A stretch of 64,000 nt of DNA, from contig NC_092403.1 in NCBI RefSeq assembly GCF_009017415.1, forward strand, positions 186,001 through 250,000. The letters run 5' to 3'. Within the stretch, counting starts at the first letter, position 1; every line of letters begins with the position of its first letter. This DNA is from Aspergillus flavus (taxonomy: Eukaryota; Ascomycota; Eurotiomycetes; Eurotiales; Aspergillaceae). Position numbers and translations under genes: made by a program. This document shows, piece after piece, positions 1,931-63,849 of this stretch. The notes under the pieces were generated by a model. The model worked only from the letters and a program-made list of their open reading frames with translations, searched no databases and was not told the DNA's origin.

Positions 1931-3529
1931 ATGCCCCTGCCACACTTCAAGGTCATCATCGTGGGAGCATCCATCGAAGGCATTACCTTAGCATACTGTC
2001 TGCACCGGGCAGGGATCAACTATCTTATCCTCGAAAGGCGCAACGAACGTGTTCCTCCTCGAGAGGACCTACTGATTGTCATGCCAAACGGAGCACGGAT
2101 CTGGGATCAATTAGGCTTACTGGATCGAATAACGGACTTTATTGTGCCAATAGAGAAGGCGTACATGACTCTACCAGATACGGGCTCACACGAGATTGGG
2201 TTCCCTAGAGTTCTACGTGAACGGTGTGTATACCTTCGTCCCATGCAATCGTCACTCTAAGTATCACTTAGATTCGGATATTCGCCGGCGTTCATGAGTA
2301 AACGGAAAGTGCTTGAGATGTTATATACCCACCTTCCGCGAAATGATAAACTCAAGTTCGACAAGAATGTTGTCCGCATAGAGACTGGGCCGAATTGTAT
2401 GCGGGTCGTAACGTGGGATGGATATGACTACGGAGGCGATCTTGTCGTTGGAGCAGATGGTGCGCACAGCAAGGTACGGGGTGAGATGGCTCGACTGTCG
2501 AAACTAGAGGGATTAACGATGGATGTCAACAATTGTAGGTTTATCAATAGCCATTCTGGCTGTAAGGTACCCTACTAATGTCTCCTTGCAGATATGACCG
2601 TCGAGTACGTTCGTATTACAGGAGTTTCCACGCAAGATTTGGACTATCCAGCATTGACTCGTGGCACCATGTTGACCAGTAATTGTGCAGGGCAGAACAT
2701 AGCATGCTTGGTGGGGAAAAATGCAGAGATAATCTGGAGTATCTTCTTGAAGTTCGACTGTAAGTACCCCTACGGCAGTGCTCCAGAGCTTTCGGAAAAG
2801 GAAATACGACAGCGCTGTGAGAATACCGAACTATACGACCAGGCTCTATCCACCGATCTGAATTGGCGGGACGTGTGGGATAGGCGAAAATCGGTCAGTA
2901 TGATGCCAATGGAGGAAGGGCTACGTGAAAGGGGGCATTGGAGGGACATAGTCTGTATTGGCGGAAGCATGCACAAGGTGCTCTCATAATCCCCGAGATT
3001 CACGTGGGGTGATCTGACAATGATATAGACGGCACCTCATACAGGACAAGATACTAGCTGCTCTATCGAGGATGCCGCTGAGCTGGCTAATTTGTTGCAT
3101 GGCCGCCTCCGGGGGAGGCGCACAAAGCCCTCGACAGAAGAAATCAACATACTACTCGGTACATTCACGCAACGTCGTATCCGACGCTTGAAGCCTATAT
3201 ATCGCGAAGCCAAACGAGCAATCCGCCACATGACATTCTGCGGGCCGTGGAATCGACTTATTGCGAGATATTACCTTACGAGAAATGAGCAGGTCATTGC
3301 CGAATGGTTCTCCAAAGATGTAGCAGGTGGAGTCTCAGTTAAATTCCTCCCACTACCTGAACGTTCAGAGCTGGCATGGTCAGATATTCAGCTCGAGCAA
3401 CACACGTACTGGGGTGGTGTTGGTACTACGCGGATTCAATGTGGTTCCTGGGCTGCATTACACACCGTGGTTGTGATCGAGTCGCCCAGGTACATCGGTA
3501 GAAGAAAGCCTGCTTTATGTCCACTATGA
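1931..3529 (+). CDS. PaxM-like FAD-dependent monooxygenase (four exons)
   Basis: Exons 1931-2223, 2272-2534, 2592-2977 and 3029-3529 join in frame to 480 residues. The introns are 48, 57 and 51 bp, and the second holds a TACTAAT branch-point-like site. The protein matches FAD-dependent monooxygenases of the PaxM / salicylate hydroxylase type, common in fungal terpenoid and polyketide pathways. It has an N-terminal FAD loop VGASIEG (residues 11-17), then MPNGARIWDQLGL, a GADGAHSKVR motif, and a late segment with SIEDAAELANLL. Two family signatures are altered: the dinucleotide loop has Glu where Ala is usual, and the FAD ribityl-binding segment reads GQDTSCSIEDA instead of the usual GQGAN-type motif. 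The C-terminal membrane helices seen in PaxM are not obvious. It could be a functional divergent enzyme or one losing FAD binding. It stands at the head of the metabolite-type gene run. Confidence 0.82.
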
Positions 3530-3859
3530 TATTATGATATAAGCATTAATTGTGCACATGGAACCCGTGTTCTCATTGGGGGTCAAACATCAAGCATGTA
3601 GAAATATGCAACGGTCGCAAACCACAGGAAAGAAGAGGAATGAATGGCTGCCCTGAATGCAACCTGCTAAGATAATCAATCATGCATGCATGAACCTGGA
3701 ATTCCACTCCATCTGATCTCACATGACCCCGCCAACCCCTTCACCGACTTGCTTCTCATTTATAAAATCCCCCTACCACAAACAAGATCACCGCTCACTC
3801 GCATAAACTCCACCCTATCCCTACGACCTGATCGTCATAGAAATCCTGCTATAATTACA
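3530..3859 (+). promoter_or_regulatory. Promoter of the FSH1-type hydrolase gene
   Basis: No gene is seen. A TATA box (TATAAAAT) at 3761-3768 lies about 99 bp before the ATG at 3860, which favours that start over the in-frame ATG at 3686. Confidence 0.5.
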
Positions 3860-4641
3860 ATGACCAAGTCACTACCGCGCATCGCCTGTTTTCACGGTGG
3901 CGGGTCCAAAGGCGCCATCTACGAGGTTCAATGCTCCCAGCTGGCCGGACTGCTGAAAAACGACTTTCAATTCGTTTTCTTCGACGGTCCTTTCGAAAGC
4001 GGACCAGGACCAGGCGTTCTGCCCGCTTTCCGTGACTATGAACCTTTCCGGTCATGGTTCAAGAAGGATGGATCGGAAATCGAGCAGAGTGATGGGAGTG
4101 GATACGACATCTCGGGGCGGGATGGTGTGGAGCGCGTTTGGAAATTGATGGAGGCGGCGGGTCCCGGTGGAGAATGGGTGGGTGTAATGGGATTCAGTCA
4201 GGGCACCCGCATCACCGGTGGACTATTGTTGGACCAACAGCGGAGGACAGCATTTGGGGAACTGGGAAATACTCCGAAGCTGAAGTTTGGGGTGCTGTGT
4301 ATGGGTGCGGGTGCACCCATGGTGTCGGAGATTGGTCATCGTATGCTGCTCTTTCTCCTTGCTTTTTCGACGCTCTGAATATTTGTATTGACTACTTGAT
4401 TGTTACAGAGATGGCCGATACGGGATCGACGGATTTAGTGAAGATACCCACGCTACATGTGCATGGACTGAAGGACATGTTTTTGGCATTGGGAAGGCAA
4501 CAACATGCGACGTATTATGAGTCGGGTACATCAAAGGTATACGATGTTGATTATCATCATGCCATGCCTTGGTATAAGCATGAAGTCCAGCGATTGGCAG
4601 AGTTGATCCGCGAGTTGTATCGAGAGTCCACTGGATACTGA
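3860..4641 (+). CDS. FSH1-family serine hydrolase
   Basis: Exons 3860-4340 and 4409-4641 (68 bp intron) give 237 residues, the usual size of the FSH1 family (PF03959), alpha/beta hydrolases that include thioesterase-like enzymes of fungal polyketide clusters. The catalytic set is complete: Ser113 in GFSQG, Asp183 in GLKDMF and His210 or His211 in DYHHAMPW. The N-terminal RIACFHGGGSKG forms the oxyanion region. Without splicing the Asp and His would be lost. No signal peptide is seen, so a cytosolic place is expected. The substrate is unknown; release or trimming of a polyketide is a reasonable inference from context. Confidence 0.88.
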
Positions 4642-5713
4642 GTACAGCGTGGGCTTGCGAGGTCAATGCGAATGGGTACTTTATCTCGAGTGTCTGGTGA
4701 ATATTTAACGGCCCGTCATGAGGCTCAACCAGACTACGGAAGGCGTTATAGACGGACATTTTGTTTAATCTCAAGTTTCCTCATGTGGCAGGGTAGGAGT
4801 TCGAGGTAACTATAGCGTAATGAAATACGGTTGTCGGAATTGTGCTCCGTATCCGTCATGGAGTATATGATCAATTCAATGTCAACGAAGACGATATTGC
4901 CGAAGCTAAGAGATATATGCCTCTTCTTGAGACGATGAAACCGAACCTAGGTGTATATGGTGGATCTACCTATAGCTTCGACGCACTCATTCTCAATGGT
5001 GGCATTGCCAATCTCATACTTGATGCTAGGTTAACAACTTCATAATATGAATTTCCTGCCTAGCCGTCTGATACTGGAGAAGACGAGGAATTGCCGACAT
5101 TGTCTGTCATCATCGCCTTTGTTTGCTTCGGATTTAATTGGTGATAGTAGCACCAAAATTGATAACAGGGCTAACAACCACAGAAGATATTTACGCAAGC
5201 AACTCCCTACTTTTGGTCACCTACGAGAATCGGCGTCGTGGTGAGATTCAGATGTGCGCTAATCCCTTTCTCATGTATGCAAATATGTTGATAGAGACAG
5301 GATGCCCAGGATGCTATTGCAGCGCTAGTGCTACACCTTCGGAAGTGTTTCCGACACGGGTCTGCTACAAAAAGCCATCCTATTATATTCAGTCCTCTCT
5401 GTACCTGGTGACTTTACCTCAACAACATGGAATTGTGTGTTTATGGTGTTACGCATACACAAGCCAAAGTGGTAGGGGTACAAGAATGGTCCAGCCCGCA
5501 ACAAAAAGCGATAAGGTGAAATATAAAGGTGCAACAATACAAGCTTGGTGTGGTGTGCATTGCTGGAAGGCCCCTATATCACAGTTCGCATCGAAGTCGA
5601 TTGTGGTTTAATATTCAGGCTGTTGTAGCAGTCCTGCTCCGGGGCCCCCACTTGCACTGCTGCATCTCGACAATACAGAAAAATCTGTCAAAAATGCAAT
5701 TCCCGCCGTGTTC
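4642..5713 (+). other. Intergenic with two unrecognised protein-like segments
   Basis: Two plus-strand stretches look like former coding exons. One at about 4842-5030 translates to an acidic segment including MKPNLGVYGGSTYSFDALI. The other at about 5138-5290 includes KLITGLTTTEDIYASNS and FLMYANMLIETG. I do not recognise the family. They lie in compatible order, but no start codon, splice pair or stop gives one continuous product, so a decayed gene is more likely than an active one. Confidence 0.3.
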
Positions 5714-6556
5714 TCACTTTCCCTTTGAAAGTGCTGCACCGCTCCAGAGTGACCCAGGATTTAGCCGTGACGGATACAACTTCATCATACGCGAATAAAC
5801 CTCTTCGGCGGTCGTCGACTCCGCTACGACTTGATTGAAGGTTTCAAAGTAGGTCTTCGTCTCCGTGATAGCATCCGGACCGAATGAACCGTTTGGGTCG
5901 CTGTGTCCACCGATGACTACCTTCGGATTCAAGGCAGCAAGTTTATCCAGCGCCACAATCCAGGCAAGGCGCGATTCAATGGTCCCAGATTCCCCCATAT
6001 AAGGGTGCGTATTGCCATAAACGGCGTCCCCCGCCACAAGCAGACCAATCGAGGGCACCCATAGAGCAGTAGTGTCGTCGCAATCCGTGTGGCCCAGTCG
6101 CACTACCACCAGCTTTTCATTTTCCAGCTCAAATTCGTCCGCCGGAAGAGCTTCAGCGGACGTGAACGAGTTTGTGATCTGTCCAGGGAATAGTTTTTCC
6201 CACACACTCTGCAATCTCTCTGGCGAGTGCTCGTTCTCCATCCTGGACGCAACCTCTGGTATCGCTAGAACCTTCGCGCTGGGAAACTGTTTTAACAGAG
6301 TCGAACTGCCGAAATGGTGATCGCCGTGCGCATGAGTGATATAAATGGCTACTAGGTTTTTCCCACTATCAACAACCCAGTTGGCCAACTCTTCCGCGGC
6401 TTGGACCGTCAGCTGAGTATCGACGAGCACAGCATCATTTTCGCCGTAGATAAGCGTAGAGCTCGTGGGGACCCATTTAAGATCATCAGCGCCTGCAGGG
6501 CCAGTTCGGGTGGCACTCGGCCGCTTGCTGAAGAAGACTTTATGTTGGAGAGTCAT
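5714..6556 (-). CDS. Metallo-beta-lactamase-fold hydrolase
   Basis: A single exon of 280 residues with the metallo-beta-lactamase fold. The zinc motif is ITHAHGDHHFG, with ligands His75, His77, Asp79 and His80. RLGHTDCDDT and LLVAGDAVY supply the later His and Asp ligands, and IGGHSDPNG supplies the last His. Proteins of this fold in fungal clusters often act as stand-alone thioesterases for polyketide synthases, and others are lactonases or glyoxalase-like enzymes. The gene is transcribed away from the reductase gene to its right, across a 1 kb gap. It appears intact. Confidence 0.9.
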   Translation of the reverse strand: MTLQHKVFFSKRPSATRTGPAGADDLKWVPTSSTLIYGENDAVLVDTQLTVQAAEELANWVVDSGKNLVAIYITHAHGDHHFGSSTLLKQFPSAKVLAIPEVASRMENEHSPERLQSVWEKLFPGQITNSFTSAEALPADEFELENEKLVVVRLGHTDCDDTTALWVPSIGLLVAGDAVYGNTHPYMGESGTIESRLAWIVALDKLAALNPKVVIGGHSDPNGSFGPDAITETKTYFETFNQVVAESTTAEEVYSRMMKLYPSRLNPGSLWSGAALSKGK

Positions 6557-7597
6557 GATTATCTTTTCCAGACAAGTCTGAGGGTTGGGAGGTACGCAAA
6601 TATGGACATTATTTAAGGATAACTCGACGGAGTCATTTCGAAAATTCCAGTTCCCTCAAGTCACTGCCGGATTTGTCATCCCCCAGCTATTACTCTTTAT
6701 CCTCGGCCGCGAGAGTTTTGATGAGCGATCATGAAAGCTTGGTGGCAGCCGACTGCGCCAGAGCTACTACACCGCAGACCTCCGTCCGGCGATCCACCGC
6801 CACAAGTATGCCATGGTGAAGATTGATTTTTACAGAAATAACATCAAACATCGTGGCAGAGCCAGTGTTGGCCCCCTTCACTTGTACTAAATTCGCTTCT
6901 CGCCATGGTTTCTGTAGTGTGCAGATATGCCAACAAAAGCCGACCCGAGATCGGCTCGGCGAGGTTAGGGTTTTCAGCATATCGTCTAGACAGGGTCCAC
7001 AATAGAGCCCAATTGGCCTTCTCTCCCCACCATTCGCATCTGCCGAGCTCGGGTCGGCATTGATTGACTGTGGAGATTAACTTTAAATTGCTCATTTCAT
7101 TAATGGAGCTGTCATTGAACACGGAAAGGCCACATTTCCTTATAGTTGATCAATAAGCAACAGTCCCGCAGTTAGTGATTATTCATCATTATGATTAGTT
7201 ATAGAACCCTACTTGGTTTTCAAGTAAGATGACAGAGTTTCCAGTCATAAATCCATGTCTATTATTTATTTATTAAACGAACTAGCCGGCGAATAGCCGA
7301 CGAAGAATAAGTATAAGCCGTCCGGCATTGTCCAACATTAGAGTCAGATTTGTCCTGGTCAATACCCGTCCCAGCATATCGAAAAGGTCATTAACTCTAG
7401 TATACCGGATCATTCCGTGGGATAATAGATAGGTAAAATTCCAGCTGTGGTTTCAATCCCCGGTTGGGGCCTCCGAGGGTGGACTATCTACGTTTACAAA
7501 CTTAATGATGAAGTAAAGGATTCTGAACGTAGGGACACCCAGTGGACTTAATAATGCGAGATATTAATCAAAGTGAGTTATTCAACGTCATATTAAC
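6557..7597. other. Intergenic, no gene seen
   Basis: About 1 kb, AT-rich between roughly 7140 and 7440. Short open frames overlap on both strands and show no recognisable domain. It holds the promoter of the hydrolase on the left and the 3' end of the reductase on the right. Confidence 0.45.
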
Positions 7598-8684
7598 TTA
7601 CAAGGAAGCCTCGACTTCTCTCAACCTCAACTGCTGCTCCAGCATCGCCTCGACAATTTCATCTTGCCTCCTCCAATTCATTCCCAACATCCTCTCCGCA
7701 GTCCGTGTATCAACTGTCCACCCTCCTTCGATCGGTCCCTCTAATTTACAGCCAACAAAAGGGAACTTCCGCCTCACCAACTCCCTTACTTCTTCCCATG
7801 ACGCCGCCGGCGCCGACAAAAGAAATTCCGTCCCAGACGGAATCTCCGTCTTAAGCGCTTGAAGATGCGCTTCCGCCACATCACGTACATCCACCCACAC
7901 GTTCGGCATTGTCGGCTTCTCAGAACGCAGACTATTCCAGAAGAGCGCGTTGATTCCGTCTATCCCCTCTGGTGTTTCCTGGATGAGACTCTCACCAAGA
8001 ACAAAAGTTGGATGGAGCGTAATGATAGTAAAGTGTGGATTCTGGCGGGCCAGGAAGTCCCGCGTGGCTTGGTGGGCGCAAATCTTCGAGGCGCTGTATT
8101 TCAAGCCGTGTCCACGGGGGCCTTCAGGTATAACTGTAGGCAAATCAATTGAGATGATCTCGTTGGTGTTGTCTACCCCATTCTATCAGTCTTGGTCCAG
8201 GTACCGGCATGTGGTGGAGGGAAGCAGAAAGATCTTCACCTTTCACGAATACTTCCTTCTGTTGCAGAGCAGTAGGGGGCACTAATGCCAGGACCGAGGA
8301 TACAATGATCACCTTCTTGATCTGAGGGAATGATAGAGCAGAAAAGAGAACGGATTCGGTTCCTTTGACGGCCGGCTCGATATAGTCTGCTTGCAGATCG
8401 GAACCGCGACCTGGCATCGGTGAAGCCAAGTGGAAAACATAGTCCACGCCGGTAAGAGCAGGCTTGAATGCGTCTCGGACGGTGATATCCGTAATGATAG
8501 AGATTTCAATTTGGTCGTTATAGTCAGGGTATCGGGCTCGTAGAACGGCTTCCTGCTCGGGTTTGCGGATGACTAGTCGCACCCGGTAGCCCGCCCGTAG
8601 GGATACAAGAACGACTTGTGAGCCGATGAACCCGGTCGCCCCGGTAATTAATATAAGAGGGGTAGAGTGATGGGGAAGTGACAT
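7598..8684 (-). CDS. Extended short-chain dehydrogenase / DFR-like ketoreductase
   Basis: Two exons, 8684-8240 and 8172-7598, joined over a 67 bp intron (8173-8239), give 339 residues. The N-terminal NAD(P)-binding loop is ITGATGFIGSQ (residues 13-23). The catalytic pair is Tyr174 and Lys178 in YSASK, and VSSV supplies the catalytic Ser region. This matches the extended SDR group with dihydroflavonol 4-reductase, cinnamoyl-CoA reductase and fungal ketone reductases. Splicing removes an in-frame dead end and brings the YxxxK motif into the correct place. A minus-strand TATA box (8742-8749) lies 58 bp upstream of the start. It shares a short divergent promoter with the tautomerase gene. The substrate is unknown. 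Confidence 0.9.
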
Positions 8685-9050
8685 GTTGAGCTGATTCTGG
8701 GGATTCTCCGTGGATAGGTTGTTCTAGCCGGATGTCGACACTTTTTATACCACCGCGGGGCCACAAAGTAGAAGAAGCAAGCAATAGTGATGGCGTAATC
8801 CACCGCGTTGACTCAGTTCACTAATCATAACTAAAATTGATTACCATATCTGAAAGTTTCCTTGGTTGACGTAACTCACGATTTCTAATCTAGCGTTTTG
8901 CTCCGAACTCGCACCTGTCTCAGCGGGTATACGATATCCTATAAAGAGGCCTCTACGCAAACCCCAGCCCCTGATTCTCTCATCTCTGCCATACTATCAG
9001 AGAGATATCGCTCCCTCCTATTCACCGTATCACATACCATTCCCAGAAAA
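8685..9050. promoter_or_regulatory. Divergent promoter between reductase and tautomerase genes
   Basis: A 366 bp region with opposed TATA boxes: TATAAAAA on the minus strand at 8742-8749 for the reductase, and TATAAA on the plus strand at 8940-8945, about 106 bp before the tautomerase ATG. The arrangement suggests the two genes are co-expressed. Confidence 0.6.
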
Positions 9051-9527
9051 ATGCCCCTCTGGCAAATATACCATCCCCCAGGGACCTTTACCACTTCAAC
9101 GGAAAAGGAAGCCTTTTCCAAAGCCATAACGGAAAACTACACATTCGTCGGCCTCCCCGCCTTCTATGTTGTTGTCCAATTCCACGAACTGGACCCTGAA
9201 AACGTCTTCGTGGGCGGCGATCAACGGTCCAAAACAGCCAAGCCCTTCGTCCGGATAGTCGTCGCCCACATCGCCATCCGTCTGCCAGACGCCGACGAAT
9301 CATACGCCCGGGTCACCGCCAGTATCGACCGGGTGCTGAAGCCCCATGTACTGGACAAAGGGTATGATGTTGAGTATCATGTTGATGAGACCGAACGGCG
9401 GTTGTGGAAGATCAATGGGATGATCCCACCACCGTGGAAGAGTGAGGCGGAGCAGCTGTGGGTGAGGGAGAATCGGCCTGTTGTTTATAAGGGGGCGTTT
9501 CCTGAAGGAGGGAAGACGGCGCTCTAG
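9051..9527 (+). CDS. Tautomerase, cis-3-chloroacrylate dehalogenase-like
   Basis: 158 residues in one exon. The start MPLWQIYHPPGTF places Pro directly after the initiator Met, as needed for the N-terminal catalytic proline of the tautomerase superfamily (Tautomerase_3 / cis-CaaD-like group). The upstream in-frame extension to 8898 is rejected because it would bury that proline, and a TATA box at 8940 fits the shorter form. The length and the motif ENVFVGGDQR agree with fungal members. The reaction in fungi is generally unknown; isomerisation or hydration of an unsaturated acid intermediate is possible. It sits beside the reductase and PKS remnant. Confidence 0.85.
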   Translation: MPLWQIYHPPGTFTTSTEKEAFSKAITENYTFVGLPAFYVVVQFHELDPENVFVGGDQRSKTAKPFVRIVVAHIAIRLPDADESYARVTASIDRVLKPHVLDKGYDVEYHVDETERRLWKINGMIPPPWKSEAEQLWVRENRPVVYKGAFPEGGKTAL

Positions 9528-10163
9528 CTTTGGATTGAAAGATGTTTTTCTACGGACTTACTTGCGAAACTTACACTGGTTTTTCATGGCGGAGTCAAAA
9601 GGAGTACGAAGTACTATCATTGTATTGCATTCTATTATCGATAGTCTGATATTAGTTACATGTAGCGAGCATATATATCTCAACAACATCTCCTATGGCT
9701 TTGTCTTTCTGTTTAGCGGCTTTCTGGATTAACATTTAACAGCATAACTAGTAGTGTTGTCCATCTTTGAATATAACTCGATCTTTATACCAAGGGATGA
9801 AAGCCGAGATTACAAGCTCGTCATTAGCTTTATATTGATTTCTGTTACAGTACGCTGTCCAATTTTGGAATGCCGTTGTTTCATTCCATTCCAAATATTG
9901 TTTAGTTTTGTTTCACCTTGTATTGCTGGAACAATCAAAGAGTATAAGTGGCTTAAACGAGCTCCTAGGCATCAACTCCGCTCTGAGTCTCATTAACGTA
10001 CACCACGATAATAACCATCTCAGTCCTGGGTATCTCGTCTGTCTGGAAGCTCAGCCTCGTCTCTGTCTTTGCTGTTCTTCCTGACCTTCATCTTGCTCTG
10101 GTATTCCCTGACACAGTCCATCAACTTCCTCGTTATGGCACTTGACTTCTGGTACGGGGGTAA
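9528..10163. other. AT-rich gap upstream of the PKS remnant, no gene seen
   Basis: This is where the ketosynthase, acyltransferase, dehydratase and most of the enoylreductase of the adjacent PKS should lie if it were whole. No frame here encodes any of them. The base composition is AT-rich with long T runs. Confidence 0.5.
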
Positions 10164-11710
10164 GCTAAGCTCGACCGGGGAGTACACCAAAACGCGACAT
10201 TCATCATGTTCAATGTCCGTTTGATTGTCACGGAACGTCCGGCTATTTTCCGTCGAGATCTTGAAAAGGTCATGGAACTGTTCGCGGAAGGCAAACTTCA
10301 TTATGCACTTCCATTGAAGATCCATGATATCTCACATATAAAGCACACGTATGAGGAAGCTCATAGAGGCAAAAACGTGGACAAGTATGTATTCAAAGTG
10401 TCCCCTGAATCCGAGGTTGAGGTAAGACACCCCGCTCCTTTACATAGAGCACAGGCCTAAACATCGTAATCCAGGCGACCATCGACAACAGACCGACCTT
10501 TAAGATGAACCAGAATGAGACCTTTGTGATTGCAGGTGGCCTTGGAGGCATTGGTCGTGCGTCAGTGGGGTGGATGGCTGCCCGTGGTACAAAGAATCTA
10601 GTCTTGCTCTCCCGCTTCGGCCCACGCACTGATCCCGGTATTAAGCTCATCGAAGAACTCAAGGTCATGGGAGTCCGTGTTGAGACTCCTGCGTGTGATG
10701 TTACTGATATAAATGCCATGCGCGCGGTCTTTAACAAGTTAATGCCAGAAATGCCGCCTATCAAAGGCGTCATTCAGGCGTCAATCATTGCACGAGTAAG
10801 TGCAGCTCCATGTTTGAGTCAGCATAACTACTTAACTTACCTTGTAGGACTCTCTTTTCGATGACTTGGAGTTCCCAGATTGGAAAGTAGCGGTGGAATG
10901 TAAAACGGTCGGCTCCTGGAATCTTCACACCGTTTTACCTCACGGACTGGACTTTTTTTTATTCTCTTGGCATCCGCATCTGGCCTTGCAGGAATTAAGG
11001 GCCAGGCGAACTACGATGCCGGAAATACATATGAAGACGCGATTACCCGGTATCGGGTGTCTATAGGAGAGAAAGCTGTCTCTTTTGACCTCGGTGCCAT
11101 GGCTGACGACGGGATATTGGCTGAGGACAAAGCCCTTCTCAGTCGTGTCCACGGCTACGGTGCATTGGATCTCATCAAGAGGGAGACATTCTATGGAATG
11201 CTTGATTATTACTGCAACCCAGACCTCCCTCTTTTGACTCCCAGGGAATCTCAGCTCGCGTTTGGCTTAGGAACTGCTGGGGGCGATGCGCTCGAGAGTT
11301 TGGACCACGCCCGACAGCCAATGTTGCAACCTCTCGTCCTAGAAGGGCAAAGAAGGTCTACGAAGACCGAGACCGGTACCCGAACTACTAATATGAAGAA
11401 CATAGAGCGATTCAGAGCATCCGAATCTCTTGAAAATGCGGCAAAATTATTTGCTGAGGCCGCTATTGGAAAGCTCGCAAAATCGCTCGCTACAATGCAA
11501 GATGGTGCATCGGTTGACCGAAACAAGCCCTTGCAGGCATATGGGGTTGACTCTCTACTGGCTATTGAGCTTCGGAATTGGATATCCAGAGAGTTTAATG
11601 CAGATCTGGCAGTCTTTGAGACTCAAGGATCTTCGACGCTTGGAACTCTCAGCATGTTGGTTGCAGGAAGAAGCACCATCAAACACGAAAAATGGTCGAT
11701 CATGGAGTAG
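10164..11710 (+). pseudogene. 3' remnant of a highly reducing polyketide synthase (ER end, KR, ACP)
   Basis: Exonic segments are about 10164-10421, 10475-10795 and 10848-11710, with introns of 53 and 52 bp. The first encodes the last part of an enoylreductase domain, including KVMELFAEGKLHYALPL. The next two encode a ketoreductase with GGLGGIGRAS and GQANYDAGNTYEDA. An acyl carrier protein with the phosphopantetheine site GVDSLLAIEL follows near the C-terminus. Ketosynthase, acyltransferase, dehydratase and most of the enoylreductase are absent upstream. The ketoreductase also carries a frameshift: the open frame before the T8 tract at 10953-10960 is one base out of step with the frame that continues from 10967. 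A full highly reducing PKS would be about 2,300-2,600 residues, and under 500 remain. It is therefore a truncated, frameshifted gene, unless the T tract is a sequencing error in an otherwise expressed fragment. Confidence 0.9.
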
Positions 11711-11840
11711 GTTCCAGTCACTGAAAGATTGCACTCTCGGCGAAAGGTGAATTTAACATAGTAATATGCTGTTTATGCATAAAGGGTAACACTTTGCTGA
11801 ATCTGAGAACCCACCTCCACGACCTCCGCTATGAATCTAG

Positions 11841-13052
11841 TTATATATTCGCTTTTCCCCCGCCCTTTTCCAATTTTTGTGCCGAAGGTATGATATGTGC
11901 AGCGTGTTGACTAACGGCAATTAACTCCATGGTTTCGTCACATAGAAGAATTTCCATATCCATTCTTCCATCTACAATACGCTTGACCTCACTGCGCAAG
12001 TAGAGCCATCGAACACCCTTCCGTGGCAGATTTCTCTTTACCTCGGTCGACATAGATAATGTGACATGAACAGTCTGCGTAATAGGTTCCTTAGACCCAT
12101 CCAGCTCTAGCTCCCTCCAGTTCGGCCTTCCTTGGATCCGAGAATCTCTTTGGGCCGCTGCGAATTCGAGCGTAGCAGCAACACTACCCATGGGTAATCG
12201 CTTTGATCGCGGGAAAAAGTTCTCCTGAACTGGTAGACTCATGTCTATAGCAAATTGTATCATCTCTGTTGTCCATCGTGCTTTTTCCTCGTCTTTCTGC
12301 ACTGCACAGGATCCTTGAGGGAGGCAGTCCCAGCCAGGTAGGATCCATTGCTCTGTGAATTTTATATCAGAGGGCCAAGACTTTGGGATGAAATTTTTCA
12401 CATAGGAGTGAGCACGCCGAAATCCATTTGGATGAAACGCCGTTTGGTAAGATGTCCAATCAGGGTCACAATCCATTTCCAGTTTCGATAGATCAACTTG
12501 ACGGGTAGTCAAATGCCAACCGGTCTGAAGACTGATGCCCGGTAATCTGAAGTCAGAGAGCCTGAATTGTATCAGCGTCTGATTTAAAAACATTTGAAGT
12601 CCAGTTTAATTGACCAGGGTCCCCCACCATAGATCTGCAGATGCTGCAATCTTGCCAAATTGGGACGTCTCAACGCGTAGTGTGGACCATGCTTTACCGA
12701 GGCTCACTTCGCGTAACTGCATTTGGACTGGCTTTGACGCAATGATCGGACGATAGAACTGAACCAGCGATGTCCGAACATCTGTTTGCGTTCGTAGCGT
12801 CTCATGCTTCGAAGCATGAACGACGGCATATTTTGCCATCAAACTGGCTACATAACCCCCACAGCTGACTGGGGACGTTCTTTTGTTAGTCCTGTAGCCT
12901 AGATCTTTCACCTTGACAACACGGAAGGCGTGGATAAGGTCGAACTCACCTGCTCCAAATGCAATATCCGTTGGAAGCTCCATAGAAAACTGGTCGCCGG
13001 AAGGAGAGATGTCCAATGCGGTGGACAGGCTGGTTGGTAGTGCCTCTGCCAT
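11841..13052 (-). CDS. Thioesterase-like superfamily protein (4HBT_3 type)
   Basis: Three exons, 13052-12950, 12868-12628 and 12561-11841, with introns of 81 and 66 bp, give 354 residues. The protein fits the fungal thioesterase-like family with two hot-dog halves (PF13622 type). The first splice restores the segment FGAVSCGGYVAS, matching the family's HGGYVAS-type helix. The second joins SADLW to LSDFRLPGISLQTG. The C-terminal half contains FHPNGFRRAHSYVKNF and EQWILPGWDCLP, both typical. The predicted role is hydrolysis of an acyl-CoA or acyl-carrier thioester. It shares a 304 bp divergent promoter with the 2OG oxygenase gene. The upstream ATG at 13154 is possible, but the start at 13052 fits the family better. 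Confidence 0.8.
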
Positions 13053-13356
13053 CTTTTCTCGTTGAAACAAGGGTGGGGAGAAACTTTCTATTTCGTGTAT
13101 AAAACCACCACTGATGACGTGTTCGGTGCAAAGGAAAATGGAAATGAGAAACAAAAAGACACCACAGAAGGCAGCCCTAGAGCATATTAATAGTAGGCAA
13201 TGGCGACTTTAGCGCAGTCCGATGCAAGGATTACGGAGCATTTCGGGGCTGGATTCATCTCTCTAGTGCCTGACCGCGGTAAAAGAACACAGATACATAA
13301 GCCCACTTGTAACCCACACTTTCCCCCCTCAGGCCCCATTTCGTTTGCTGCCGACA
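13053..13356. promoter_or_regulatory. Divergent promoter between thioesterase-like and oxygenase genes
   Basis: A 304 bp interval separates the two divergent start codons. A TATAAAA on the plus strand near 13099 is too far from the oxygenase ATG (13357) to be convincing. No other site is recognised. Confidence 0.4.
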
Positions 13357-14527
13357 ATGCCGACAACCAGATATTTTGACCAATGCCCTCCATTCCCATC
13401 CAATCTTCATATTGTGCCCTTGCCAAAGGTGTCTCTGGAAGGCCTTCAGAATGGAAGCGAGCACGAGAGCCAACTCTTATTCCAAGCCTGTCAGGAATGG
13501 GGATTTTTCTCGCTAGATCTGCGCCAGTCGGACAAAGGCAATGAGCTTCTAGGGGACGCGGAGCAAATGTTCGATCTGACAAGGGAAACCTTCGACCTCG
13601 ACCAGTCGGTTCTTGATAACTATGCCTACAAGCCGCCTCATGACCTAACCGGGTAAGATCCCAATCACTTCGATATAGTCTTGCAACACGCTGATGATGA
13701 GAAGGTACAAGCGTAAGGGTCAACATAGGACAGATGATGGTAAAATGGATTGCATGGAGCTTTATTCCATAAACCAAGACGATATTCTTGGTAACCGCCC
13801 TCCACGAAGGAACGCCGATTCCATTGAAGCCAGATGAGCGGAAGTGCGGCAATTCATTGAGAACTCCCATTCTGTTATAGGTATTCAAGGCCACAAACCG
13901 AAATCATAACTTAGGATGTGGAGTCTCATTTCCATAACAGATATCATATTAACTTGTCTTGACCATCAACTGGGGCTTACACCTGGAACCCTCAGTGCAC
14001 TCAGTCCCTTAGAACAAATCTCTGAGACATCGGTCCGATTACTACTGAGTCAGTCCCAATCTAGCCCTAAGTACGATAATATCACTCTCGGTGGGCATAC
14101 TGATATTGGCTCCATCACGCTGCTATTCAATGTGGTTGGTGGACTACAGATCCTCCCGGCAGACCGTGAAAACAAGCTAGAAAACTGGCTGTATGTGAAG
14201 CCGGAACCGGGGCATGCGCTGGTGAACATCGGCGATACCCTTGTTGAGTGGACAGGTGGACTTCTGCGAAGCTCCTTGCATCGTGTTTTAACGGCCCCGG
14301 GGGAGCAGGCGCTGGTGGGCCGTCAAAGCGTGGCCTATTTGGTGCGCCCACGGAACAGTGCCTCCATGCAGAGGCTGAAGGGCGGCATTATTCCACCAGT
14401 GGAGGAGGGTCAGGATGATGAGACACGCTCGGTCAATGAATGGGCTGGATGGCGCGCTAGGCAGATCATGCTTGGCCAGCTTAAGCCACAGACAAGGGGC
14501 GGGAAGTCGGTGGTAACACCGGCGTAG
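13357..14527 (+). pseudogene. 2OG-Fe(II) oxygenase with an in-frame stop
   Basis: Exons 13357-13652, 13705-13880 and 13941-14527 (introns of 52 and 60 bp) keep one frame over 353 codons and encode a full-length isopenicillin N synthase-like oxygenase. Visible are the N-terminal domain, the GYKRKG and DDGKMD segments, the iron motif HTDIGS, and SSLHRV with the later His and NSASM-type end. In the middle of exon 2 a TGA (13835-13837) interrupts the frame after SIEA-R, while the homology continues immediately after it (AEVRQFIENSHSVI). I tried an alternative intron removing the TGA (13797-13842 region); it leaves the wrong frame. The gene is thus a single-nonsense pseudogene, or there is a sequencing error or readthrough. 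Members of this family oxidise secondary metabolites. Confidence 0.8.
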
Positions 14528-14708
14528 TGATTCACCTACTATCGAGCCCGGACTTGGCGCAAACCTCTATGTTCGGTTGACCTTGGATATGCTTCTTGAT
14601 GTAGCTGGATAATGAATGGTACATCCGATGATGGGTGATGGTTCAGCAAATGATGTGACTGCGGTTTATTCGAAGTATTATATTGTATCACAAAAGTCAC
14701 GCATGCTG

Positions 14709-16265
14709 TCAAGGAATAAGCCCAACTTTAGTCCCATTCCTCGGGCAAAGCGTCAAAACCAGGCCTTCTTCCCAAGACCCCGGATCCCGACTCTCCAGCC
14801 CGCGGAACTCCTGCGCCATCCGGACAAGAACGTAGCTCGCTTCGGTCAATGCATAGCGCTGGCCAAGACAGATCCGCGGCCCGCCATTGAACGGCAAATA
14901 TCCCCAGCGCGGTTGCAGCTTACCGTCCTCCCAGCGCTCTGGGCGAAATTCTTTTGCATCGGGTCCATAGAAGTCGGTTCGGCGATGCATCGCGTAGATA
15001 TTATAGCCGACAAGGGTTCCTGCTGGGACGAAAACGGGCGAAAGGCCGTCGTTACCTCCGCCCCGTGGGAGGACTGTGTCTCGCATTGCTTTGCGTTTAT
15101 TGGTAGGCACAACGGGGTGAAGACGGAGGGCTGGGGGTTTGATGTTAGTGAGAGCGAGGTCAAAGGAGTGGGAGTCCATACATTCATTCACACAGCACTG
15201 AACATACCGCAGCCCGCGAAGTTCCTCATATGTCGGTGGCCGATTCTGCAGGACAGCAACTTCTGCACGCAGCTTCGCCCAAATCACGGGATTCTTCGCT
15301 AGCATAAAGAACAGATTCCCTAGCAGACTTCCTGTTGTATCACGACCGGCCAGGAGCACATTTATCAACTCATCTACCATACGCTGCTTATCGGATGTCC
15401 GTGACGCCAGCTTATGCGATAAAATATATCTTCGTTTCGTCTCCGTCGTTCTGCTTTCTTTTTCTTCTTTCTTTGGTCCAGCAGCATAGACAGCCTCTTC
15501 AACATACTGCTGTACAAAATCTCGACAGATTCGATTACACTCGTCAGCCTTTCGATCACGGTAGACTGCATTCAACGGGCCCAGCATGTCGCGTACAGGA
15601 ATAGCTTTAAGGGCATACTGTAAAGCATCTGCGAACGCGAGTCCAGACTGACTCTTCTTCAATGCGCCAACAGACTGTCCAAACAAAAGATCCGTCGCGG
15701 AATCAATCGTGTACCGGAAGAACAGTTCCTGTAAGTCCACTGTTGTACTATCCCGTGGAAGCAACACAAAGAGATCCTGCATCAACCTCTCTAACAGGCT
15801 TAGGTTGGCTACCTGCTCACGGGCGAAACTCGGCCGGATCAGCGCGCGCGACGAGGCCCAATGTTGGCCATCGGTATTGAAGATGCCTCTGCCTAATAGC
15901 GGCATAAATAGCTCGAGACGGTGTCTGAGGGTATAGTCCTTGAAGTTCAGCGATAAGACTGCTTGGATATTTTCATGCTCAATAGTCACGATGGCACTTT
16001 GATGCAGCTCTTTGACTGTGAAAGTGTTGCCGTATGCGCGAAATATCTCACAACTTCTCCCGAGAACCCGATGCTGCCTGATCGCGCGGATTGTCCCGGG
16101 GATGGTATCAAGGCCTAGGAAAGGATCCTTGCTGAAAGATCTCGCGACTGGTTGACAGCCGCAGCGGCGTGCGAACTGGCGCCGGTTGAGGAAGCGCCGG
16201 ATGGATACACTTGCAATCCCCAGTGCAGCAAGCAGGAGGATTACGAGCTTTGGAAGGAGTTCCAT
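14709..16265 (-). CDS. Cytochrome P450, CYP52/CYP539-like
   Basis: Exons 16265-15182 and 15130-14709 are separated by a 51 bp intron (15131-15181) that has no stop and is a multiple of three, so the unspliced frame is also open (518 codons against 501 residues spliced). The spliced form is preferred because it creates the K-helix motif ESLRLHP (ExxR), which the unspliced reading lacks. An N-terminal hydrophobic anchor (residues 5-20), the I-helix AGRDTT and the haem loop FNGGPRICLGQR are all present. The overall look is of fungal P450s that hydroxylate fatty acids or alkanes (CYP52 clan). It converges with the oxygenase gene. It seems intact and could hydroxylate an alkyl polyketide or fatty acid. 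Confidence 0.9.
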   Translation of the reverse strand: MELLPKLVILLLAALGIASVSIRRFLNRRQFARRCGCQPVARSFSKDPFLGLDTIPGTIRAIRQHRVLGRSCEIFRAYGNTFTVKELHQSAIVTIEHENIQAVLSLNFKDYTLRHRLELFMPLLGRGIFNTDGQHWASSRALIRPSFAREQVANLSLLERLMQDLFVLLPRDSTTVDLQELFFRYTIDSATDLLFGQSVGALKKSQSGLAFADALQYALKAIPVRDMLGPLNAVYRDRKADECNRICRDFVQQYVEEAVYAAGPKKEEKESRTTETKRRYILSHKLASRTSDKQRMVDELINVLLAGRDTTGSLLGNLFFMLAKNPVIWAKLRAEVAVLQNRPPTYEELRGLRYVQCCVNECMDSHSFDLALTNIKPPALRLHPVVPTNKRKAMRDTVLPRGGGNDGLSPVFVPAGTLVGYNIYAMHRRTDFYGPDAKEFRPERWEDGKLQPRWGYLPFNGGPRICLGQRYALTEASYVLVRMAQEFRGLESRDPGSWEEGLVLTLCPRNGTKVGLIP

Positions 16266-17058
16266 GGTGACTAGGATATCACGAAGAATGATGAGACAGG
16301 AACAAGTGAATGTCTATTCCTCTGACGTATTTCACGCAGCAGTTGTGGTGAGACCCGTCACGTGTGAAGCCCTAGACAGAGATGTGGAAGTAAGCCTAGA
16401 TCTTGGTAGAAGTTTGGTTTGCCCTGTAGGAAGTCTGCTCTTAAACTTGAAGATACCTTGTTTGGCATTTGAAATCCAGATGCTTTCTTCTGTTCCTTGT
16501 CTCATCCGCCTTGAGACTGGTTTCTTGCTTTAAAGTATCCTTGGTTTATTGCGTCATATGGGGCTTAAGATAGGTATGTAGATCCTCGATAGTGAGGCCC
16601 CCAGAGCCATATACTCTACGCTTAATAACCTGTTTTTCCTATACTTCCAGAGTGTTGAATAGCCTGTTTCGTAGGTAATTTACGCTGCTTCAGCCAGAAT
16701 AGCTTGCAGTGAGATGGTCGGAATAATCAGGACAGAAAAGAATAAGGTTTATTAGAAAAAGAATATAAACTATCATTACCTCTTACTACCTCCGAAATCT
16801 AGGCAAAAACAAATTTTATATTGGCCGGCTTCTAGCTATAGTCGCGGACTAATTCGAATCAAAGGCAACCGGACAAGTCTCTGAGAGATTCTCATATCAG
16901 TGTTCGGAAGACCCCTCTGAACAAACAACGACGTCTCATTTTTACGCCATGCTTGTTACCGCACAGTCATCTTGCGCGCTTCTTCCTCGTTACCTGACAG
17001 TAAATCCTACCTGTCAACAGATATACCACATTGCCGGGGAACAAGAAAATTGATCCAG
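16266..17058. other. Intergenic, no gene seen
   Basis: About 800 bp containing the P450 promoter. The open frame at 16186-16533 overlaps the P450 start and shows no domain. The region from 16540 to 16900 is AT-rich without clear coding signal. Confidence 0.45.
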
Positions 17059-17690
17059 GATGGCTTCTAGAGGTCGTCGGAAGAGGCAATTGGACAAGAT
17101 GGCCAATGCATAGCTCTACCTATATTGTCTATCTTTCATCACCTTGATACCTGGGAGATTCACTGACAGTCAGCTTGACAGATGTGAGCAGTGTAAGAAG
17201 AAAAAGGTCAAATGCTCGGGACGCTACCCCTGCGAGTCATGCTTGGCCCGCCATTCGCAATGCATCTTTGAACAGGCAGAAAAGAGAGTTATTGTATCTA
17301 AAAGGTAACGGTACAGTCCACAGCGCTATATTCACCCTATTTAGATATGCTATTGTCAGTTATCTACGCAAGCTACAAGAGTCCTACACCAAGAGGCAAG
17401 AAAAGCCTGTCCTGACCCGTGCGAACTGAGGGGATGTATCAATTCCGGAGCTCAATGCCGACTTGTCTCTCGGGCATGGTTAGCAGATACACTAAGATCA
17501 GCAGAGAGTACCTGCTAAATAAGTCAAAGGAGGTATGTATACTGCCGGAGCGAATGCGGCCGATGGAGAAGCTATTACGAACCCCTTGGTGTCTGCCACT
17601 TCCTTCTATCTTCAAGACGCCCCTATGCGATACCGTGAGTCAAACTATAACTTCCAAAAAAGGTGTATGATGCCTATACTAGGTTAGTTG
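17059..17690 (+). pseudogene. Remnant of a Zn2Cys6 transcription factor
   Basis: Around 17183-17290 one frame encodes a perfect binuclear zinc cluster with spacing CX2CX6CX5CX2CX6C, starting CEQCKKKKVKC and ending with the sixth Cys after LARHSQ. A plausible 60-70 bp intron leads to the coiled linker YLRKLQESYTKRQ, then a stop. Further scraps in another frame near 17540-17650 (ADGEAITNPLVSATSFYLQDA) resemble the start of the middle homology region of fungal Zn2Cys6 activators. No frame continues into a regulatory domain, and upstream in-frame stops cut off the basic N-terminus. It probably was the regulator of the adjoining metabolite genes and is now dead. Confidence 0.75.
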
Positions 17691-18785: not shown

Positions 18786-19496
18786 ATGAAGATCAGCGTC
18801 GCTCTGGGCCTCATCTCACTGGCACTAGCAGTGCCTCGCCCTCCGAGCCCAGCTCTCAGTGATACAGGCGTTAGCAACTACAACAACGTTAACAATGCTG
18901 CACCTCCCAATCAACGTCCCGCGAGTCCCGCGCAGAGTAACACGCAACCTGCTACCCCGAACCCCGTCCCCGCCAACATCGAAGGTCTCGATACCTCATA
19001 CAGCGTGAAATGTGGTACGCCATTACCCCTACCCCAGGACCCAGATTCATACTAATCCAGAACACACAGGAAGATCCACATTCCCGGGAGCAGACATCCA
19101 CCGCGCAATATCCCTAGGTGTCGATCTAGACCGCAATGGCAAGCAACTCGGCAGTAAGATACATCCACCCTTCTACATCAACCTTCTAAACAATATACTA
19201 ACAAAAGTACAGCATTTCCCCATGATTACACCAATTACGAAAACTTCAATTTCCTGAACAAAAAATGCAATGGCAAAGGTGGGCTCCGCCGGAGAGAGAT
19301 CCCCATTGTTAGAGGTGGGTATTTTAATGGAAAACTGGATGCAAAGGACAACGTGTTCCGAGCTATTTATTTACATAATATTTGGGAGACGGCTGATGGG
19401 CAAGGGAAAGCGCCTGCTATATATTGTGGTACCATCTATCATCCGAAGGGAGCTCAAACGTTTCAGGGGTGTGATGTTAGGAAGGTGAAGTCATAG
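18786..19496 (+). CDS. Secreted guanyl-specific ribonuclease (N1/T1-like)
   Basis: Three exons, 18786-19014, 19070-19153 and 19213-19496, with introns of 55 and 59 bp, give 198 residues. A signal peptide (residues 1 to about 16) precedes an Asn/Pro/Ser-rich segment to about residue 68, then a microbial ribonuclease domain. Family hallmarks are PHDYTNYENF with His108, REIPIV with Glu133 and CGTIYHPKG with His181, matching the His/Glu/His catalytic set of RNase T1-type enzymes. The Tyr before the first His is Phe106 here, and the usual catalytic Arg position is not clear (DNVFRA). Cys76, Cys123, Cys176 and Cys191 could form disulphides. The domain is larger than classical T1 enzymes, and the Pro-rich N-terminal part is unusual. 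The product is expected outside the cell. Activity is not certain. Confidence 0.78.
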
Positions 19497-27878: not shown

Positions 27879-29335
27879 ATGACTTCTGACAGCCTGTTAC
27901 AACTGGTAAACCCATTCTCTCTAGATTCTATAACTTCTAATTGATCAAAAGTTCAGCAACCCAGATTCTATCCCATCTGACCCAAGATGGAGTCACCTTC
28001 TGGCACCGTATCTCGGGAACGGTCTGATTCATGCCGCGACGTATAGCCTGGAGGAAATCCGCAAGCATGTTGACTTTTTCATCAAGCATATTGGTCCTCA
28101 TTTGGGCCCTGGTCCATTGGGAAAAGATGGCTACCAACCCCGGTATCCGTCGGCTATGACCGACGATTTGACGCCCTTTGAGCTCAGTCTGTGCTGGAAA
28201 GATCCAAAGCAACAGGGTAGGCCAATTGTTCGATTTGTCAGCGATATCATTCCTGCAGATGCGGAGAGAACTCGCATAGCGTCACTGCTGCAGTCGCAAC
28301 GGTTGATTGAAGCTCTACGGAACATTGCTGAGGATACCTCCGATCTTACGCTGCATATGTTGCCAGATATTTGGAAGGCCGTCTCCCACACTTTGAAGGT
28401 TTCTGAAACGCTCATCCACTCTGGCAGTTGCTCTCCATGCGGCTCATCCTCTGCCTTTATCGCCTTCGACCTAAAGAAGTCCGTCATCAGCGGTAAATTC
28501 TACTGGCGCCTACCGTTTTGTCTCGATGTCCCTGGAACACTAAACCTAATGGACCAGGTGTTCAGTGCCTGCTTTGCGGTCCACGAATTCTTCGGCTCAG
28601 CTGTTTTCAGCACGTCATGGCACCAGATCCGCGAACACATTCGCAATCATGCCGACACTCTCTTACCGCGCATGATATCCATCGATGCGACGGCCTTTCC
28701 AGCCCCCAGAATCAAAGTCTACGTGAACTGTCGCTTCCAGGGCGAGCGCAACTTTGACTCATGGGAACATCATCTCCGCTTCAACGACTCGGTTGCCTGC
28801 CCGGAGGATTTCCGATCGACTTGTCGTGATCTCTGGAATTCGCTGACAACAAATCCACCAGAGTGGGCCCAGACGCGACCAGATGCAGGACCAAGATCTT
28901 GCCTGTTGCTCTACGAGCTGACTGCGTCTTCTGCTAAAACCACCGATGAACAACGCCAGAAGCTATCTAGCAAGCTGTACATCATGTGTCAGGAGATTCC
29001 ACTCCCAGATTCGGTAATTGCGACACAGCTTCTTCGCCATTGTGAGCTGGCTGGAGATGCAGATATTCTCAAGTATGTTTGTCTATTTACCTTTGAAAAC
29101 AGTATAACTGACTGTGTAGATTCTTTGCCGCCGGAAGGAAACCCACTAATTTCATTTCCGAGTATGTCTACCCCGAGTGTGAAAATGATCGAGCTAACTG
29201 TGTAGAATCGGTCTTGCTCCACGTCAAGTAGGAACCGAAGTGTCGATCTATCTCAACCCGAGTTATTTTGCCAGGAAATCCTGGAATGTAGCAGAGGACG
29301 GATACATGGCCAAGCCTCGTATTACGCTCAGCTAA
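27879..29335 (+). CDS. DMATS-type aromatic prenyltransferase
   Basis: Four exons, 27879-27905, 27952-29072, 29120-29161 and 29206-29335, with introns of 46, 47 and 44 bp, give 439 residues, the normal length of the dimethylallyltryptophan synthase family. The tiny first exon (nine codons) reads MTSDSLLQL and joins to FSNPDSIPSDPRWSHLLAPYL. Family signs are the IGPHLGPGP segment, then DDLTPFELSLCW (substrate-side Glu), RPIVRFVSDI, and KVYVNCRF, DKSW-like and IYLNPSYF strands of the ABBA barrel. Introns 2 and 3 were placed because the 14-codon exon between them (FFAAGRKPTNFIS) restores the last repeat into IGLAPRQVGTEVSIYLNP. The enzyme would transfer a prenyl group to an indole or other aromatic. 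No NRPS or other partner core enzyme is nearby. Confidence 0.9.
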
Positions 29336-56981: not shown

Positions 56982-57455
56982 CCACTAGAATCTATTGCGA
57001 AACTCTTCTACCAGATCCACGCTTAATTCAAAACATGCAGCACAAGGTCTTTGAGTTGGTAAGACGTAATATCTAGCACAGATGGTCAACTAGCCGCATA
57101 AGTAACATTAGATGGTCACTCGAATTTATAGCGCTGATTGGGTCCCTTACTTGTATTCGTCAAATCATCGAAGCAAGCGTGGTTCCTTTAGGTTGCCTCT
57201 CCTTCCCTTTACTACCCGGTATGGCTTATACCTGTCTCCATATCCCTGTATCTATACTCTACATATAGGGAGTCCGGATGTCATCAGTAGTTTGTATACG
57301 GTGGAAACCGCGACTACCTTCATACTAAACTTATGACAAAAACATGCCAAGGACTGAAGGCAATTTTGTATCCGCTAAATGAATCGAGTTCTCCACATCA
57401 ACTCCTTCCCTGCGATCTCTCCAGGAGCAATATTTTCTTCACGTGCCTAATTGCT
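56982..57455. other. Intergenic, promoter of the Zn2Cys6 gene
   Basis: About 470 bp. The in-frame extension of the regulator to 57333 lacks any domain and is treated as leader. Confidence 0.4.
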
Positions 57456-62399: not shown

Positions 62400-63849
62400 T
62401 CATAAACGCAACTCCCGCTTCGGCCACAACCAAGCATCCCCATACTCAACAACACCCTTCCTACAAACACTCAATATGTCCGTGACCAAAGCCCTCCCCG
62501 AGTTTGAAGCCCACCAAATCTTGCCATCAAGCTGACCGAGTAAAACCCCCCAATGTCCGAGGATAAGCAACGAAAGAGGCTCCAGACCCCTAAGCATATC
62601 AACGAATCTTCTATTAACCACAGCTAGCCAAGTAACAACCGAGCCCGGATCTTTCATAGTGCTGTACCGACAAAAGCACCGCCGCAGCAGATCTATCGCC
62701 TCATCAGTAATAAGATGTTCTTCTGGTAGAGTGCTATTCTTCTGATTATTTAGCGCCGTTAAACGGCTGAAGGCTTCTTCCGTTTCACTATCCAGACACT
62801 TGGCAGCTGGGGCCCAGTAATCCCCGACTGTCGGGAAAGAACTCTGCGACGACCATGCGCGAGTCATTTTCGAGATCTCGGTGGTCCCTTGCAGTAACTC
62901 GAAGACGTGGAGGATGTTTTCAATCATGTTCGGACCTTCGTTATCCCCTATTGCTAAATGGGGCATTGCTATACGACTGGCGATGGTGATGAGGGAGTAG
63001 GCATAGATGGCATCACAGTTTGCCGGCGAGATGTTGTTAAGAGCATGTCGGAAGGGCGTCAATGCTCGGTTCTGGTATTCTAGTGCCGTGTCAATGTATG
63101 AACGTGCTTCTAGGGGGGGTTTTGTTGCCGCGGTGTGCAGTGAGGCAATTGATAGGATGCCGTCTAGAAGGAAGTCGAATTCAAGTGCTTTGCGAGGCAT
63201 GGAGGTTTGCCATACTCGGTGGTCTAAGGCGTCGCTAGAGAGACTGTAATAGGTCTCTGTTGAGAATTTGTGCATGAGCTCTAATGAGCGGAGATCGTAG
63301 TGTGTGGTGGCTGGCGGTGATTGACTGGGGATGGCGTTTGGGCTTATGGACACCTGCGGAGAGCTAGGGCTCGCTGACACTGTGTTTGGCATGAGGGCCC
63401 CAGCGGGTGTGCTGGAATAGGCGCATTCTATCCCCCGGGTGGTGCAGTTACTGCAAGGTGGGCCGCGCTCGTCACACTACGAGGTGGTTAGATAGGGCTC
63501 ATGCACATCGATATTTGTATCGATCATATGTAGAGGGATTGGTGAATTCAGCTGCATATAGCAGTAGTCCTATTCCAATACAACGCAGAATGACGGTTGT
63601 AGTCCCTGTTTAATACGATACACATCCCAAATTGCTCCATAACAAGGACCCTTATTACTGAGGTTTAGAGAAGCCTGGGTAAGGAAAGATAAAAGCGCGA
63701 AGATGCAAATAAACAAATACAAAGAAACAGATGATGAAATGGAACTGTTGGACTGGACTAAATTACTGAACCTGACTCACCTTTACTCGTCTCTTTTTAC
63801 ACTGGATACAGCCAGTGCGTGACTTCTTATGGGATCTCCGAGGCGGCAT
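62400..63849 (-). CDS. Zn2Cys6 transcription factor, paralogue-like of the one at 57.5 kb
   Basis: Exon 1 (63849-63781) encodes MPPRRSHKKSRTGCIQCKKRRVK. A 304 bp intron (63477-63780) follows, and exon 2 (63476-62400) begins with CDERGPPCSNCTTRGIEC. The zinc cluster CX2CX6CX6CX2CX6C is therefore split exactly between the exons, and joining gives 381 residues in frame. The regulatory domain shows IASLHTAAT, YIDTALEYQNRALTPF, NISPANCDAIYAYS and GHWGVLLGQLDGKIWWAS. These segments match the same places in the 57.5 kb regulator, at around half identity by eye. The intron is long for this window but has normal GT and AG ends. The target genes are unknown; the adjacent mannanase is a candidate. Confidence 0.88.

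What the first reader, a model, noticed from the sequence alone, without database searches (positions are those of the whole stretch)
1931..17690. A polyketide-type gene cluster in decay: dead core and regulator, intact tailoring genes
Nine metabolite-type genes and a regulator relic lie side by side: PaxM-like monooxygenase, FSH1 hydrolase, MBL-fold hydrolase, SDR reductase, tautomerase, PKS remnant, thioesterase-like protein, 2OG oxygenase, P450 and Zn2Cys6 relic. Three carry independent lesions: PKS truncation plus frameshift, an oxygenase nonsense codon, and a fragmented regulator. The rest keep full frames and catalytic residues. This is what a cluster looks like soon after losing its scaffold enzyme. 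The combination of cis-CaaD-like tautomerase, MBL hydrolase, FSH hydrolase and thioesterase-like protein with one HR-PKS is unusual, and an intact orthologous cluster may be undescribed. That the genes formed one cluster is inference.
Basis: partly seen in the sequence, partly recalled or inferred. Interest (0 to 1): 0.8.

Follow-up and report, generated by a model that had tools for sequence, protein, structure and literature searches.

The report
Truncated fungal polyketide synthase beside thioesterase
In the mould Aspergillus flavus a gene for a large metabolite-making enzyme has lost about its front four-fifths while its partner gene still looks whole, a related gene pair elsewhere in the same genome has been cut in a similar way, and only half of the proposed gene cluster can be tied to it.

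Summary
The polyketide synthase (PKS) remnant matches about the last 19% of full-length relatives. It has one frame change in an eight-T tract and no stop in its exon pieces. The missing part is not elsewhere in the genome at orthologue-like identity. The 2OG oxygenase carries an in-frame TGA. The regulator keeps a perfect Zn2Cys6 motif, but no Pfam domain was found after it. One correction: the PaxM-like monooxygenase has an open frame but has lost its FAD motif (GD to GG), so it is not clearly intact.

"One decaying cluster" is half supported. The tautomerase, the one left-hand gene tested, shares a contig with either in 0 of 8, A. pseudotamarii included. The other left-hand genes could not be tested.

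Chromosome 7 of the same genome holds a second, about 62%-identical PKS remnant beside a thioesterase, also lacking the PKS 5' part. This is ordinary loss of metabolite genes, with a repeated pattern worth following.

The parts
1931..3529 (+). PaxM-like FAD monooxygenase, 4 exons, 480 aa; open frame but GD motif reads GG and GQG reads GQD
   Evidence: link to the PKS not shown
3860..4641 (+). FSH1 serine hydrolase, 2 exons, 235 aa, open frame
   Evidence: link to the PKS not shown
5714..6556 (-). MBL-fold hydrolase, 280 aa, single exon
   Evidence: link to the PKS not shown
7598..8684 (-). SDR-type reductase, 2 exons, 339 aa, open frame
   Evidence: link to the PKS not shown
9051..9527 (+). 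Tautomerase_3 (cis-CaaD-like), 158 aa, 95% to A. sergii, 80% to A. pseudotamarii
   Evidence: contig test against linkage
9528..10178 (.). interval that holds the PKS break; 9528-10200 is single-copy in the genome
10179..11710 (+). PKS remnant: end of ER, KR, ACP; about 81% of the protein missing on the 5' side
10953..10960 (+). eight-T tract where the PKS reading frame changes
11841..13052 (-). hot-dog (4HBT_3) thioesterase, 3 exons, 354 aa, open frame
13357..14527 (+). 2OG oxygenase, 3 exons, with in-frame TGA at 13835
14709..16265 (-). cytochrome P450, 2 exons, 501 aa, open frame
17054..17684 (+). Zn2Cys6 regulator relic; zinc motif complete at 17183-17263, no Pfam domain found after it

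Best explanation
The right half (10179 to about 17.7 kb) is what is left of a highly reducing PKS locus: a KS-AT-DH-ER-KR-ACP synthase paired with a separate hot-dog thioesterase, with a P450, a 2OG oxygenase and a Zn2Cys6 regulator as probable tailoring and control genes. When whole (inferred from the families), the PKS built a reduced chain on its ACP, the thioesterase released it and the oxygenases oxidised it. About four-fifths of the PKS was deleted from the 5' side, the break lying between the tautomerase and 10179 (shown: that part has no match of orthologue-like identity in the genome). The frame change, the TGA and the loss of the regulator's body came before or after (order unknown). 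Inactivation is recent on the scale of the species group (supported, not proven). The five left-hand genes are neighbours of unproven connection; the deletion may have brought them next to the PKS end (inferred).
For: PKS homology in the window only at 10179-11707. A full-length relative finds at most 39% identity over long N-terminal stretches of this genome, and 45-58% over shorter conserved ones, against 73% for the remnant itself. PKS and thioesterase on a contig of equal length in 6 of 10 species, in Kalmusia with neighbouring tags 011265/011266; of the window's own PKS type this is seen in one, P. capsulatum. No stop in 1413 bp of remnant exon pieces, against an expected 0.95 at 2% change and 4.75 at 10%. 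Remnant branch 0.093 against 0.15 and 0.15 for its sisters. Tautomerase linked in 0 of 8 species.
Against: Contig length is a proxy for linkage, and 4 of 10 species do not fit it (A. pseudotamarii, A. tubingensis, O. unilateralis, P. angulare). Most tautomerase relatives compared are about 60% identical and may be paralogues; only A. pseudotamarii is closer. No full-length PKS of this type is listed for A. flavus, A. pseudotamarii or A. bertholletiae among the best 120 of 354 hits, which could mean an older loss than the stop count suggests. The link of P450, 2OG oxygenase and regulator to the PKS rests on position alone.
Confidence: 0.68

Rival explanations
1. One reading: all ten genes were one cluster, which recently lost its PKS and now decays.
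For: The genes are adjacent with short gaps, and their classes occur in fungal metabolite clusters. The FMO also shows damage to its FAD motif, as would be expected if it decayed together with the PKS.
Against: Tautomerase and PKS/thioesterase share a contig in 0 of 8 species, and in A. pseudotamarii the closest relatives are on contigs of 877,666 and 818,040 bases. Besides the thioesterase beside the PKS remnant, none of the window genes tried has a match in C7:420001-460000.
Confidence: 0.2
2. The KR-ACP stub and the thioesterase are kept as a working pair, so this is domestication and not decay.
For: Stub and thioesterase lie side by side at two loci of one genome. No stops in the C8 stub and a normal branch length. 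Thioesterases of this clade occur in A. pseudotamarii, A. bertholletiae, P. malachiteum, P. herquei and P. lividum, for which no full-length PKS of this type is listed.
Against: The C8 stub changes frame. The C7 thioesterase appears to change frame in its first exon. Recent loss explains the missing stops as well.
Confidence: 0.07
3. The lesions are partly assembly errors: the T8 frame change in particular could be a homopolymer miscount.
For: The change sits exactly in a run of eight T.
Against: It cannot explain the missing 81% of the PKS, the TGA or the regulator.
Confidence: 0.05

Closest known systems
Full-length HR-PKS of Penicillium angulare (P0179), P. glandicola (P0180) and P. capsulatum (P0181)
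   Same: 79%, 80% and 73% identity over the KR-ACP piece; same clade
   Different: They are 2270-2432 aa with the domains of a full HR-PKS; the window keeps about the last 19%. No product is named in the hit table
Second PKS-thioesterase locus of the same genome, C7:441.6-443.9 kb
   Same: KR-ACP end of a related PKS beside a related thioesterase (62% and 54-55% identity), PKS 5' part missing
   Different: Other subfamily (that of A. novoparasiticus P0188, 95%); cut further downstream; thioesterase upstream on the same strand; no match there to the other window genes tried
A. flavus S/L morphotype differences on chromosome 8 (PMC6288828)
   Same: PKS genes broken or lost in L strains; seven deletions within metabolite clusters relative to S strains, two PKS genes among the losses (section 14)
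   Different: The inversion lies at C8:316-852 kb by its primers, not at 196 kb; whether one of the deletions is this one is unknown, as I could not open the tables

Membership tests
Highly reducing type I PKS | KS, AT, DH, ER, KR and ACP in one protein | tested here: not met
   Only the end of ER, KR and ACP remain; a relic of the family, not a working member
Highly reducing type I PKS | sequence clusters with full-length HR-PKS | tested here: met
   Clade with P. angulare and P. glandicola, support 100/99
Hot-dog thioesterase (4HBT_3 type) paired with an HR-PKS | both 4HBT_3 domains and a full frame | tested here: met
Hot-dog thioesterase (4HBT_3 type) paired with an HR-PKS | lies on one contig with such a PKS in other species | tested here: met
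Hot-dog thioesterase (4HBT_3 type) paired with an HR-PKS | releases the PKS chain | not testable with these tools
   inferred from family; no solved relative beyond E 0.86
Single fungal biosynthetic gene cluster of ten genes | genes stay together in relatives | tested here: inconclusive
   met for PKS and thioesterase, against for the tautomerase; other genes not tested
Class A FAD monooxygenase (PaxM-like) | GD motif that binds FAD (its role is recalled) | tested here: not met
   GG in the window; GD in 6 of 6 paralogues aligned there
cis-CaaD-like tautomerase (Tautomerase_3) | Pfam family and N-terminal proline after Met | tested here: met
   182.5 bits; starts MP; closest solved relatives RhCC and AU4130
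Zn2Cys6 regulator | six-cysteine motif | tested here: met
Zn2Cys6 regulator | regulatory domain after the motif | tested here: not met
   none of six open pieces matches Pfam at E <= 1

The most novel reading that the evidence does not exclude
Loci of one PKS-thioesterase gene family are repeatedly reduced in the same way: the 5' bulk of the PKS goes, the KR-ACP end and the thioesterase stay, because the thioesterase, or the stub with it, has a use apart from the PKS product. Two such loci are in this genome, and five other species list this thioesterase type without a full-length PKS of its type.
Probability: 0.1. Interest if true: 0.55.

Novelty: new member of a known kind. Interest (0 to 1): 0.33.

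Why it matters
It shows how a fungal metabolite locus comes apart: the scaffold enzyme goes from one side while a releasing enzyme persists, at two related loci of one reference genome. It points to a PKS-thioesterase pair that is linked in several moulds and that my nine paper searches did not show to be described. It also warns that genes side by side in a low-synteny chromosome arm need not be one cluster.

Tried and rejected
The known chromosome 8 inversion as cause: rejected. None of its four primers is in the window at up to 2 mismatches, and the two that I sought genome-wide lie at C8:852,414 and C8:316,352. Fragment as a recent copy of a complete PKS: rejected. Front part moved elsewhere: no match of orthologue-like identity. 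Repeat at the junction: 9528-10200 is single-copy (that search skips simple repeats). Structured RNA: no Rfam match at gathering score in the window. Telomere repeat in the window: none. Nine paper searches found no description of this locus among the rows listed; I read section 14 of PMC6288828 and passages of PMC6288828, PMC7046712, PMC7534430, PMC11061970, PMC8313989 and PMC6028093, and saw all others as listings only.

Not settled: linkage of FMO, FSH, MBL, SDR, 2OG oxygenase and P450 in relatives, because the three protein searches went to the tautomerase, thioesterase and PKS piece. Dropped were unnamed metagenome rows, named tautomerase species without a counterpart, A. flavus AFGD_005950, Bogoriella and Lojkania (thioesterase), and Letrouitia, Thozetella, Xylaria flabelliformis and all weaker rows (PKS). 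The first C7 comparison held a wrong 7-residue MBL query and no 2OG query; one search repeated it with both and found none.

Full report
Source. The window is C8:186001-250000 of a genome of 37,736,778 bases in 8 contigs; C8 has 3,252,168 bases. This fits the 8-chromosome, 37.749-Mb assembly of A. flavus NRRL 3357, given with chromosome lengths of 6.510-3.252 Mb in a passage of PMC7534430. Our total is about 12 kb smaller and contig C7 (3,085,000 bases) is below that minimum, so the match is good but not exact. The thioesterase is 99% identical over 48% of its length to A. flavus AFGD_005950, whose 288-aa model is spliced differently.

What is there. Pfam confirms each enzyme class; models are. 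The thioesterase model has the same length, 354 aa, as relatives in A. pseudotamarii (88%) and A. bertholletiae (76%), which supports its introns.

Lesions. (a) PKS: tblastn with eight relatives finds matches at E <= 1e-3 only within 10179-11707. P0179 matches from residue 1960 of 2432, so about 81% is missing. The frame changes at a run of eight T, 10953-10960; the exon pieces counted hold no stop (introns and a few bases round the tract left out). (b) 2OG oxygenase: TGA at 13835 in exon 2. (c) Regulator: complete Zn2Cys6 motif, then no Pfam match in six open pieces. (d) FMO: open frame, but CIGGS in place of the GD motif found in 6 of 6 paralogues aligned there, and GQDTS where all six keep QG.

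Age. A simple neutral estimate (Poisson, transitions weighted 2:1) gives a 39% chance of no stop in 1413 bp at 2% change, 9% at 5% and 0.9% at 10%. The remnant's branch is 0.093, against 0.15 and 0.15 for its two sister sequences. Both point to recent inactivation. Against this, no full-length PKS of this type is listed for A. flavus, A. pseudotamarii or A. bertholletiae among the best 120 of 354 hits. So the loss is wider than one strain, or happened more than once, or gene models hide the gene. AF70 and NRRL 3357 differ at 1.78% of the aflatoxin cluster (passage of PMC6028093), a distance at which the stop count cannot exclude loss before their split.

One cluster or two groups? Contig length served as a proxy for linkage. 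Ten species are in both the thioesterase and the PKS list. A. pseudotamarii, A. tubingensis, O. unilateralis and P. angulare do not fit. Five of the six are wider relatives; only P. capsulatum has the window's own PKS type next to a close thioesterase relative. The tautomerase shares a contig with either in 0 of 8 species. In A. pseudotamarii the tautomerase relative (80%) is on a contig of 877,666 bases and the thioesterase relative (88%) on one of 818,040. So the PKS-thioesterase pair is real and the tautomerase is probably not part of it. The PKS break lies between them, at 9528-10178, so one event may have both cut the PKS and made them neighbours; that is inference. Chromosome 8 has low synteny in section Flavi (PMC7046712, passage) and the highest nucleotide diversity in A. 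flavus (PMC11061970, passage).

A second case. The KR-ACP piece has a 62% match at C7:443084-443836. The open piece C7:442997-443857 holds the end of KR and ACP. A thioesterase paralogue (54-55%) ends about 170 bases upstream. None of FMO, FSH, MBL, SDR, tautomerase, P450, two 2OG exons and the zinc-motif piece has a match within C7:420001-460000. The full-length relative in A. novoparasiticus is 95% identical over this piece (tree support 100/95). The C7 thioesterase seems to change frame in its first exon. Two members of one family have thus lost the PKS 5' part in this genome.

Alternatives. The published S/L inversion maps to C8:316-852 kb. A full-length PKS as query finds 39% or less over long N-terminal stretches and 45-58% over shorter conserved ones, so the missing part is not elsewhere as an orthologue. 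PMC6288828 states that L strains carry seven deletions within metabolite clusters relative to S strains, with two PKS genes and four P450 genes among the genes lost (section 14). This locus may be one of them, but I could not open the tables.

How it would have worked. By family, the HR-PKS builds a reduced chain (P0179-P0181 list no methyltransferase domain), the thioesterase releases it, and the P450 and 2OG oxygenase oxidise it under the regulator. Only the PKS-thioesterase link has comparative support. In its present state the locus should make no such product.

Verdict. A real and mostly ordinary decayed PKS locus. The single unusual ten-gene cluster is not supported by what could be tested. 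The repeated 5' loss at two related loci is the part worth following.

Noticed in passing
L024 (C7:440001-450000), C7:441560-443857: Second PKS remnant (KR end and ACP) with a thioesterase paralogue just upstream; the thioesterase seems to change frame in exon 1.
   Followed up: partly
27934-29205: DMATS-type prenyltransferase gene (Trp_DMAT, 162 bits), with an NmrA-like gene, a male-sterility-type reductase and a CRAL-TRIO gene between 21.5 and 26.8 kb; perhaps a separate metabolite locus.
   Followed up: no
392-1525: Intact-looking proline racemase family gene (427 bits) just left of the monooxygenase.
   Followed up: no
18787-19496: Small secreted-looking protein in pieces with a weak ribonuclease match below the Pfam cut-off (17.3 bits).
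   Followed up: no
57291-58661 and 62400-63476: Two further Zn2Cys6-type regulator genes near each other (the second scores below the Pfam cut-off in the stretch given).
   Followed up: no
C8:848995-854115 (outside the window): PKS matches next to the inversion primer at C8:852,414, probably the fused PKS gene that PMC6288828 describes for L strains.
   Followed up: no
P0128 (A. flavus AFGD_005950): The public model of this thioesterase keeps the first intron as coding and lacks a middle stretch, a probable annotation error.
   Followed up: partly
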